This document shows, in pieces, positions 45,101 through 48,100 of a stretch of 64,000 nucleotides of DNA. Made by a program: the position numbers and the translations under genes. The stretch covers positions 17,159,282 through 17,223,281 of the forward strand of contig OZ025271.1 of the NCBI GenBank assembly GCA_964019165.1. The letters run 5' to 3'. The first letter of the stretch is position 1, and each line of letters starts with the position of its first letter. The notes beneath the pieces are model-generated. The model saw nothing but the letters and a program-made list of their open reading frames with translations, was not told the DNA's origin and searched no databases. The stretch comes from Mastigias papua (taxonomy: Eukaryota > Cnidaria > Scyphozoa > Rhizostomeae > Mastigiidae).

Positions 45101-48100
45101 ATATATATATATATATATATATATATATATATATACATATATATATATATATATATATATATATATATATATATATATATATATATATATATATACATAT
45201 ATATATATATACAGTATATATATATATATATATATATATATATATATATATAAATATATATATATATATATAATATATAAATATATATATATATATATAT
45301 ATATATATATATATATATATATATATATATATATATATATATATATATATATATATATATATATACACTCAAATAGCTCCAATCATAAAGAAATTTTTAA
45401 AGACATAAATAGACCCTCAAGAAAAAATTCCAACTTTTAAAACGTTTCGGCACAAGCCTTCATCAGCTATTGATGAAGAACTGAATAACTGATGAAGGCT
45501 TGTGCCGAAACGTTTTAAAAGTTGGAATTTTTTCTTGAGGGTCTATTTATGTCTTTAAAAATTTCTTTATGATTGGAGCTATATGAGTGTATATATATAT
45601 ATATATATATATATATATATATATATATATATATATATATATATATATATATATATATATATATATATATATATATATATATATATATATATATACATAT
45701 ATATATATATAGTTATTTATTATTGTATATCAAAATATTAAATCATATAATCATATTATGAAGTAAGTATGGAGATAAGAAGCAACAAGAACCCACCTTG
45801 GGCTATTTCCAACTGAGTTAGACTTCGCAGACTCAAAAGACCTCTGCAACTGCGGGCTGGTCCGTTCACTCTGGCTCCGCGAGCTCGGTACATTATTGGA
45901 CTTGTACTTACCCTCGAAATTCCTCAGCTCTATTGGCGACTTTGGGCTAAATGGTGGCATAGAGCCGTTGTCCCTTTGATGTGCACGTGAGTATGCTTCC
46001 TTCTGGACGAACAGACTTCGTGCCCGCATATCGTCGGGATCGTAACTTGTTCTACCATCTCTGGGTGACGTCACTTTTGTGACTCCCGATTCATGTACCG
46101 CCCCATTCGAAGCTTTGCTAGATCTCTTTGGTGATTCTCTGGATTCAACGATTCCCATGATTTCGTTGGACGAGTGCGAGCGAGTATGAACGATGTTGTC
46201 TACAGGACTTTCATCGGCTTCTTGCTCAAGATCATCCCCTCTTCCCCAAGATAAAAATGACAAAGAGTCTTTCGGACCAAATTTCGTTAGCTGATCGCCA
46301 GTGCCTTTGTTTACCCGAGAATTATCGTCCGAGTCTTCCTCCTTGATCGCACTTGCGAGACTACTTATACGACTCTGTTGAGACTGTATCCAAGAATCAA
46401 TGTAACTCGTCTTTCGCTTTCCGTATCTGGGCGATTGCTTACCAGGCTCGTCGTCTGTAATCTGAGTCTGCAGTAACTTTCTCTCATGTGGCACCGAATT
46501 CCCTGTACTATGATCTTCCTTCTCTTTGCTGTGCAGCACGAGTTTGCTACCTGTTGTCTTCGGTGGTGGATCCGATCGTTTATCGTTGCGAGCGATTTGT
46601 TCTCGGCGTTCCTCTTCTCGCTGCCGGTATTCTTCTAGCATGCGCCCACACTCCTTTGATCTGTTAATGAGCTCCTCTTTGGACCTAGAAAGGCAAAGGG
46701 CAGGTGAGCAAACGATGGTTATTAAAAGAATGAGAAAAAGACGCCAAGGAGCAATGTCGTATTCTGTCTTTCAAAAAGTACATATCAGGAGCATACTAAA
46801 TTACCTCATAATAGACGCGAAATCTCTTATGATCTGTAAACAAATTTTATCCTAATAAGCCCTGGTCAAAGGATCCAGCATTTCGCCAAACATTCACTGA
46901 ACAACATCCGTGTTTAGTGGAAAATTGGATCGTTTGGCCATCATGTTCAGTTACCAAATATTGTGTTCAGCGATGTTTGGTTGAAATTGCTCAAAATCAA
47001 CAACAAACCATCATGTCATCAAACATGTCTGTTGCTTTCAAATGTTCAGTGAAATGTTGGAGCACTTGACCGCCCTTGCCCTGAACAGCATCAAACATAA
47101 CATCAAATGTTCTGTCAGGTGTTGGGTGAAATAGTGGATCATTTTAACAGGGCTTAAGTACAACTTTAAAGCAAGCATTCTTTGTTCATGAAAGGCTTTC
47201 AAAATTCTGCTGTTATTAAATAATTTAGATGTTTTGCAGCCATTTCAGGCTGAAATTAGTCGACAGAAACTCATCAATTTATTGCAACCTATTGCGTATT
47301 TATTTGCAAGAGACAGTAATCAACAAAGGAAGTTCAAGTGAGATTACGGAATGTCATTGCAAATTAATTCCGTTCAATTATTTATCATATATAAATTATT
47401 TATTTTCATGTATTTTAATTCATATATTTATTTTCATATATTCTGCAGTGGCTCCTCTCCGTCAACAGAAACCGAAAAACAATCACCGCACACGACCACA
47501 CGTGACATACTTATATAGAAAGCATATAACTTACACAGAAAATATACATGCTATAGATAGAAAATATATACCATATATAAAAATAAATACAAAAAATAAA
47601 AAGTACACACCATATGAAGAGATAATATAATATAATATATATATATATATATATATATATATATATATATATATATATATATATATATATATATATATAT
47701 ATATATATATATATATATATATATATATATATATATATATATATATATATATATATATATATATATATATATATATATATATATATATATATAAGAAACC
47801 GTTAGAACTAGAGTGGGGATAGAATGCGATGCGATGCGATGCGATGCGATGCGATGCGATGCGATGCGATGCGATGCGATGCGATGCGATGCGATGCGAT
47901 GGGATGGGAGTGGTGAACACAACACTGAATGTAAACAACATCACTGGATTTGAGAACGCGTTGATTCGAGCTTTTTCTTGTCAAAAAAAGAATTGCTGTA
48001 TGGCATTAATCAATGACCGATGAAGAGACGAAAGCATTTGAACAATGCATTGTGAATTCAATACTTGGTATGCAGACCTGCGTAAATGCATTCTACATTA

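What the first reader, a model, noticed from the sequence alone, without database searches (positions are those of the whole stretch)
45365..45590. Head-to-head palindrome carrying hammerhead-ribozyme-like cores in both arms
Each 102-bp arm has CTGATGA, a GGC/GCC hairpin and CGAAAC in the order of the hammerhead core, pointing outward on opposite strands. Hammerheads are established in Penelope-like elements and retrozymes. This arrangement, two units joined head to head with a 22-bp centre inside (TA)n, suggests an unusual dimeric insertion product. Stem III is weak and stem I is not evident.
Basis: partly seen in the sequence, partly recalled or inferred. Interest (0 to 1): 0.78.

Follow-up and report, generated by a model that had tools for sequence, protein, structure and literature searches.

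The report
Mirror-image pair of Penelope-type retroelement ends
An intron carries two near-identical 102-bp pieces of what looks like the end of a Penelope-type jumping element, including a stripped-down hammerhead ribozyme core, joined back to back inside a long TA repeat, which is an arrangement already described for such elements.

Summary
The palindrome is real: two 102-bp arms (45365-45466 and 45489-45590), one mismatch in 102, a 22-bp centre, inside (TA)n. Each arm reads outward CTGATGA, a GGC/GCC hairpin, GAAAC, GUU. No Rfam hammerhead model matched. The sequence does fit the published description of Penelope-like element (PLE) hammerheads, which usually lack helix III; under that reading stem I is only 3 bp in each arm.

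New here: a single-unit relative at 31149-31251, 85% identical, also bounded by TA repeats. It ends at the same GAGTG and starts at nearly the same place; two core bases are mutated.

Head-to-head inverted PLE ends with a palindrome at the junction, and simple AT-rich targets, are already published for PLEs (PMC3846280). I read this as a short PLE-type insertion duplicated head to head during reverse transcription, most likely by self-priming; two-sided target priming is the main rival.

Not shown: any PLE protein nearby (8 of 77 listed ORFs were scanned), ribozyme activity, or copies outside the window (the genome search did not complete). Ordinary in kind; moderately interesting as a clean, minimal example.

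The parts
45365..45466 (-). left unit of the palindrome, reads outward on the minus strand: CTGATGA core to GAGTG end
   Evidence: 101 of 102 identical to the right unit
45489..45590 (+). right unit of the palindrome, reads outward on the plus strand
45467..45488 (.). 22-bp centre; 4 of the first 5 bases on each side also pair (CTATT/AATAA), leaving 12 nt; it also holds a TGATGAAG that can pair with CTTCATCA of the left unit
45489..45514 (+). hammerhead-like core, helix-III-less form: CTGATGA / A-GGC-TTGT-GCC / GAAAC / GTT, putative cut after 45514
   Evidence: the cut site is inference
45441..45466 (-). same core on the left unit, putative cut at 45441
   Evidence: the cut site is inference
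31149..31251 (+). single-unit relative; core carries G5A and G12A
   Evidence: 85.4% identical to the right unit over 103 bp, blastn E 2.8e-29; 15 of 103 differ
31143..31148 (+). bases 5' of the single unit that are not plain (TA)n; part of ATTTTAAA, possible stem I strand
   Evidence: 51 of 500 shuffles paired as well
45049..45364 (.). TA-rich repeat left of the palindrome
45590..45711 (.). TA repeat right of the palindrome
45004..45796 (-). inferred intron of a host gene that contains the palindrome (GT donor at 45796; AG acceptor at 45004 is a guess by eye, the first residue aligned to P0008 beyond it is at 44498)
   Evidence: tblastn of P0008 gives coding blocks 46740-45796, 44498-42972 and 42006-41821; P0003 covers 99% of the ORF 42795-45020

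Best explanation
The 102-bp unit is the 3' end piece (hammerhead core plus tail) of a Penelope-like element, or of a small non-autonomous element that uses the same machinery. It inserted at a TA repeat by target-primed reverse transcription, so its 3' end (GAGTG) lies against TA DNA. At the 45.4-kb site the new cDNA, on reaching the 5' end of its template near the hammerhead core, folded back on itself and primed its own copy. This gave a head-to-head pair with both 3' ends facing TA DNA. Shown: the palindrome, the single-unit relative, the common 3' end, the TA context and the near-identity of the arms. Inferred: PLE origin, priming at TA DNA, and the fold-back step. The ribozyme core is most likely a passenger here: stem I is truncated and a transcript would be one long hairpin.
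For: Core in the right order and rare by chance. The helix-III-less form is the usual form described for PLEs (PMC6155905, PMC7761336; passages). A second copy shows that the unit also occurs singly, with the same GAGTG end in all three units and TA repeats on both sides. The arms differ at 1 of 102 positions but each differs from the relative at 15 of 103, so they were made in one event (chance of 1 or fewer differences at that rate 2e-6) or kept alike by gene conversion. Head-to-head inverted pLTRs, palindromes at the junction explained by self-priming, and simple AT-rich targets are reported for PLEs (PMC3846280). In the anole PLE the core sits at the ORF start, reverse transcription starts 111-118 nt into the ORF, and AT-rich DNA is cut (PMC11167929); here the unit ends 95 nt after the start of stem II (102 minus 7). 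Local hint for self-priming: the five bases next to the arms pair 4 of 5, and the mismatch (C against A) lies next to the arms, where copying would have begun. A second palindrome in the window, 1199-1357, has perfect 47-bp arms, one of which abuts a TA repeat.
Against: No PLE reverse transcriptase was found in the window, but only 8 of the 77 listed ORFs of 90 aa or more were scanned with Pfam; the RT matches found are at 13262-16008 and look non-LTR. No Rfam hammerhead hit. Stem I is weak: shuffled upstream strands did as well in 20, 250 and 51 of 500 trials for right, left and single unit. The single unit's core has two substitutions at conserved positions. TA on both sides and inverted arms also suit a TA-duplicating DNA transposon. 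Not all PLE families are inverted: for Pen1_Av pLTRs are mostly in direct orientation only. The AC-rich stem-loop at which the anole PLE starts copying is not evident in the unit. No copy outside the window could be examined. The 4-of-5 pairing at the junction rests on five bases and no control was run for it.
Confidence: 0.5

Rival explanations
1. Two-sided target priming: the PLE protein cut both strands of the TA repeat and primed reverse transcription from both ends on the same kind of RNA; the two 5'-truncated cDNAs were then joined head to head with a short filler.
For: Predicts outward 3' ends, near-identical arms and TA on both sides, as seen. The purified anole PLE protein cleaves and extends both strands in vitro (PMC11167929), with no apparent difference in start site between strands.
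Against: Does not by itself predict pairing next to the junction (4 of 5 bases), nor that both cDNAs stop within a few bases of the same place, unless the template ends there.
Confidence: 0.25
2. A palindromic miniature DNA transposon (MITE) with 102-bp terminal inverted repeats and a TA target duplication.
For: Symmetric ends CACTC/GAGTG flanked by TA; MITEs are described as 0.05-1 kb long, sometimes reduced to their inverted repeats (PMC8969392, passages). The second palindrome at 1199-1357 is also flanked by TA.
Against: A single unit without a partner exists at 31149-31251, one case only. A MITE would not be expected to carry a hammerhead core starting at its inner arm boundary (inference). 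In a TA repeat a TA duplication cannot be recognised.
Confidence: 0.15
3. A single unit inserted first and was later turned into a palindrome by DNA-level fold-back or template switching in the cruciform-prone TA repeat.
For: Very near-identical arms; the (TA)n is itself self-complementary.
Against: The inner boundary lies near the unit's 5' end as seen in the single copy, as expected from reverse transcription rather than from a break at a random place.
Confidence: 0.08
4. The hammerhead resemblance is chance; the palindrome is an unrelated repeat. (Not exclusive of the MITE and DNA-level rivals, so the odds given here add up to more than 1.)
For: No Rfam hit; stem I poor; the two core hits are one observation.
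Against: Motif with stem II of 3 bp or more in 1 of 300 simulated windows. Of 13 matches to that motif in 951,700 bases of prokaryote and virus loci that had been picked for a similar core, 2 had stem II of 3 bp or more, 1 had stem I of 3 bp or more, and none had both.
Confidence: 0.15

Closest known systems
Penelope-like element (PLE) pLTRs in inverted head-to-head arrangement (for example Pen2a_Av of Adineta vaga, PMC3846280)
   Same: Head-to-head inverted terminal pieces, palindrome at the junction, AT-rich simple-sequence target, optional short tail
   Different: Here only about 100 bp per side, no ORF between or beside them, and no visible target duplication because the target is a TA repeat
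Minimal, helix-III-less type I hammerheads of PLEs (Cervera and de la Pena 2014, Lunse et al. 2017; neither held, known from reviews)
   Same: Core with stem II and no helix III; such motifs are described as dispersed in non-coding DNA of many animals. GUH right after GAAAC is recalled
   Different: Stem I here is only 3 bp, apparently because the units are cut off just upstream of the core
Anole Poseidon element PAc (PMC11167929)
   Same: Hammerhead core near one end of a piece that ends roughly 100 nt further on, and AT-rich insertion
   Different: PAc is a full element; its RT start lies in an AC-rich stem-loop, which is not evident here; its cut is 26 bp after the start codon, which lies at the start of stem II, against 19 nt here
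Metazoan non-LTR retrozymes (PMC7229834)
   Same: Small, non-coding, hammerhead-bearing
   Different: Retrozyme RNAs are about 170-400 nt, from short tandem repeats

Membership tests
Hammerhead ribozyme (type I) | Conserved core CUGAUGA ... GAAA with stem II | tested here: met
   Both arms; not in the single unit (G5A, G12A)
Hammerhead ribozyme (type I) | Stem I closing the core | tested here: inconclusive
   3 pairs in each arm; shuffles as good or better: 20, 250 and 51 of 500
Hammerhead ribozyme (type I) | Match to an Rfam hammerhead covariance model | tested here: not met
   None at E up to 10 in 43000-48000; none at gathering score in the window
Hammerhead ribozyme (type I) | Self-cleavage | not testable with these tools
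   needs in vitro transcription
PLE-type minimal hammerhead | No helix III: GAAAC directly followed by GUH | tested here: met
   GAAACGUU in both arms; the GUH detail of the family is recalled, the lack of helix III is
Penelope-like element | ORF with RT and usually GIY-YIG endonuclease | tested here: not met
   None at the site; among 8 of 77 ORFs scanned, RT matches only at 13262-16008. Fragments need not carry it
Penelope-like element | pLTRs in direct or inverted (head-to-head) arrangement | tested here: inconclusive
   The inverted arrangement is there; that the units are pLTR pieces is inference
Penelope-like element | AT-rich target | tested here: met
   TA repeats on both sides of the palindrome and of the single unit
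Penelope-like element | Sequence identity to a known PLE pLTR of the same genome | not tested
   the genome search did not complete (10 tries)
TA-duplicating palindromic MITE | Copies have both inverted arms | tested here: inconclusive
   one single unit at 31149-31251 lacks a partner; only two insertions were available

The most novel reading that the evidence does not exclude
The roughly 100-bp unit is a non-autonomous family of its own: a mini-element consisting only of a hammerhead core and a PLE-recognised tail that homes to TA repeats and doubles itself head to head by snap-back priming at a hairpin at its 5' end, so that each such insertion seeds its own long hairpin RNA. The second, unrelated palindrome at 1199-1357 would be the same process acting on a tRNA-like element.
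Probability: 0.15. Interest if true: 0.55.

Novelty: new member of a known kind. Interest (0 to 1): 0.3.

Why it matters
As far as the papers I saw go, how PLEs make head-to-head pairs is open: self-priming was proposed in 2013 (PMC3846280), and in 2024 a PLE protein was shown to extend both cut strands in vitro, with later steps yet to be validated (PMC11167929). Short, nearly perfect pairs such as this one, with a readable 22-bp junction and little other element sequence in the way, are good material for telling the two models apart once many junctions are collected from one genome.

Tried and rejected
Classical hammerhead with a 2-bp stem III (AC...GU over GUUUUAAAA) and cut before GG: rejected because the upstream strand cannot pair with GGAAUUUU (read by eye). 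Type III topology using the opposite arm: stem III is perfect because of the palindrome, but no stem I forms (by eye). MicroRNA hits over the palindrome (mir-722, mir-147, mir-2062; 34.6-45.5 bits, gathering 57-90): below threshold and put down to the long hairpin. Patterns of the unit in viral contigs: 0 matches in 5 of 6 scans; the sixth, a broader core pattern, gave 5 matches, none of which has both stems. BLAST of 45480-45600 against phages: none. Text search for four strings of the unit in papers: 0. Searches combining Penelope with head-to-head and target-primed, and target-primed reverse transcription with palindrom- and both strands: 0 papers each. No further unit in the window by a profile made from the three units: they match it by construction, and the next hit has E 0.33. 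The 1199-1357 loop looks tRNA-like to me, but ARAGORN and Rfam do not report a tRNA.

Full report
Observation. The stretch 45365-45590 is an almost perfect inverted repeat: arms 45365-45466 and 45489-45590, 102 bp, one mismatch at 45583, and a 22-bp centre. It sits in a TA-rich repeat (45049-45365 and 45590-45711 by Tandem Repeats Finder), so that with the repeat the inverted structure is 199 nt per arm at 98%. Reading outward, each arm has CTGATGA, A-GGC-TTGT-GCC, GAAAC, GTT. CTGATGA-N(3-25)-CGAAAC is expected 0.05 times in the window; CTGATGA-N(5-25)-CGAAACGTT was not seen in 100 shuffles. The two hits are copies of each other and count once.

Is it a hammerhead? No Rfam hammerhead model matched in 43000-48000 at E up to 10, and no family reached its gathering score in the whole window. 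Reviews state that PLE hammerheads are minimal type I forms that usually lack helix III and the tertiary contacts, that thousands of such motifs are dispersed in animal genomes, and that they may self-cleave as dimers (PMC6155905, PMC7761336; passages). The arms fit that form: GAAAC is followed at once by GUU. Under that reading stem I should pair the bases before CTGATGA with UUAAAAGUU; each arm manages 3 contiguous pairs. Shuffling the upstream strand gave equal or better folds in 20 (right), 250 (left) and 51 (single unit) of 500 trials, so stem I is at best marginal. The looser motif with stem II of 3 bp or more appeared once in 300 simulated windows. Among 13 such motifs in 951,700 bases of prokaryote and viral loci that had been chosen for a similar core, 2 had stem II of 3 bp or more, 1 had stem I of 3 bp or more, none had both. 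I conclude that a PLE-type core is likely, but a working ribozyme at this site is not shown. The whole palindrome as RNA folds into one hairpin of -169.2 kcal/mol. In the anole PLE, hammerhead mutants did not affect insertion in vitro and the ribozyme needed the protein to cut (PMC11167929).

Related copy. BLAST finds one further unit in the window, 31149-31251 on the plus strand (85.4% identical to the right arm over 103 bp, E 2.8e-29). It is single, lies between TA repeats, ends with the same GAGTG, and begins at nearly the same place. Two of its 15 differences from the right arm hit conserved core bases (G5A, G12A; hammerhead numbering recalled) and one turns a stem II C-G pair into U-G. 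A profile built from the three units finds only them, by construction, and then a hit of E 0.33. The unit therefore has a fixed 3' end that abuts TA-rich DNA in all three copies, as expected of target-primed insertion. It also occurs without an inverted partner, which speaks against a simple MITE, though on one case only.

One event. Each arm differs from the relative at 15 of 103 positions but from its partner at 1 of 102; at the higher rate this has a chance of 2e-6. In the 103-base comparison that takes in bases next to the centre, the arms differ at 2 of 103. The pair was made in one event or kept alike by gene conversion.

Mechanism. In PLEs of Adineta vaga an inverted pLTR is part of what the authors call the typical structure, head-to-head is the most frequent inverted arrangement, palindromes occur at the inverted junction, and the authors propose self-priming, on an antisense template; they also note simple AT-rich targets, and that one family, Pen1_Av, mostly has direct pLTRs only (PMC3846280; passages and the discussion section). 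In the anole PLE the hammerhead core lies at the start of the ORF, reverse transcription starts 111-118 nt into the ORF in an AC-rich stem-loop, AT-rich DNA is cut, and both strands are cut and extended (PMC11167929; main-text section). Here the unit ends 95 nt after the start of stem II (102 minus 7); an AC-rich stem-loop is not evident. Both self-priming and two-sided priming give outward 3' ends at TA DNA. I prefer self-priming because four of the first five bases of the centre on each side pair with each other, and the mismatch falls next to the arms, where copying would begin. This preference is weak and has no control. The centre also contains TGATGAAG, which can fold onto CTTCATCA of the left arm (-9.4 kcal/mol), suggesting a fold-back that slipped. 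A second palindrome in the same window, 1199-1357, has perfect 47-bp arms of which the right one ends at a TA repeat. Its loop looks tRNA-like to me and its arms would include the acceptor stem, but ARAGORN and Rfam do not report a tRNA.

Setting. The palindrome lies in an inferred intron of about 0.8 kb (45004-45796, the acceptor guessed by eye) of a minus-strand gene. P0008, a protein listed with a EukProt name, aligns to 46740-45796, 44498-42972 and 42006-41821. The host is therefore a eukaryote, probably an animal (inference). Of 77 ORFs of 90 aa or more, 8 were scanned with Pfam; two overlapping ones at 13262-16008 match RVT_1, and the first has endonuclease matches below the curated cut-offs, so I take it for a non-LTR element.

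Limits. The window's genome could not be searched: ten tries, none answered. Cervera and de la Pena 2014, Lunse 2017 and Craig 2021 are not held, so PLE hammerhead details come from reviews or recall. Verdict: a new member of a known kind, PLE-type ends in the known head-to-head arrangement, with the ribozyme core probably inert here.

Noticed in passing
window 1199-1357: A second palindromic insertion: perfect 47-bp inverted arms around a loop that looks tRNA-like to me (not reported by ARAGORN or Rfam); the right arm abuts a TA repeat, the left arm is 33 nt from another. Possibly a self-primed SINE copy or a TA-flanked MITE. No other copy in the window.
   Followed up: partly
window 29248-29587 and 29883-30219: Inverted pair of a repeat, 94% identical, 295 bp apart; a third copy at 60555-60925 is 79-80% identical.
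   Followed up: partly
window 13262-16008: Probable non-LTR retrotransposon remnant: reverse transcriptase matches in two overlapping frames, endonuclease matches below the curated cut-offs.
   Followed up: no
window 33252-35442, minus strand: Two ORFs matching consecutive parts of the CCDC90-like family, probably exons of one gene.
   Followed up: no
window 51499-51638: Perfect tandem array of an 18-bp unit, 7.8 copies, 100% matches.
   Followed up: no
window 6733-6890 and 41162-41318: A dispersed repeat pair, 77% identical over 158 bp.
   Followed up: no
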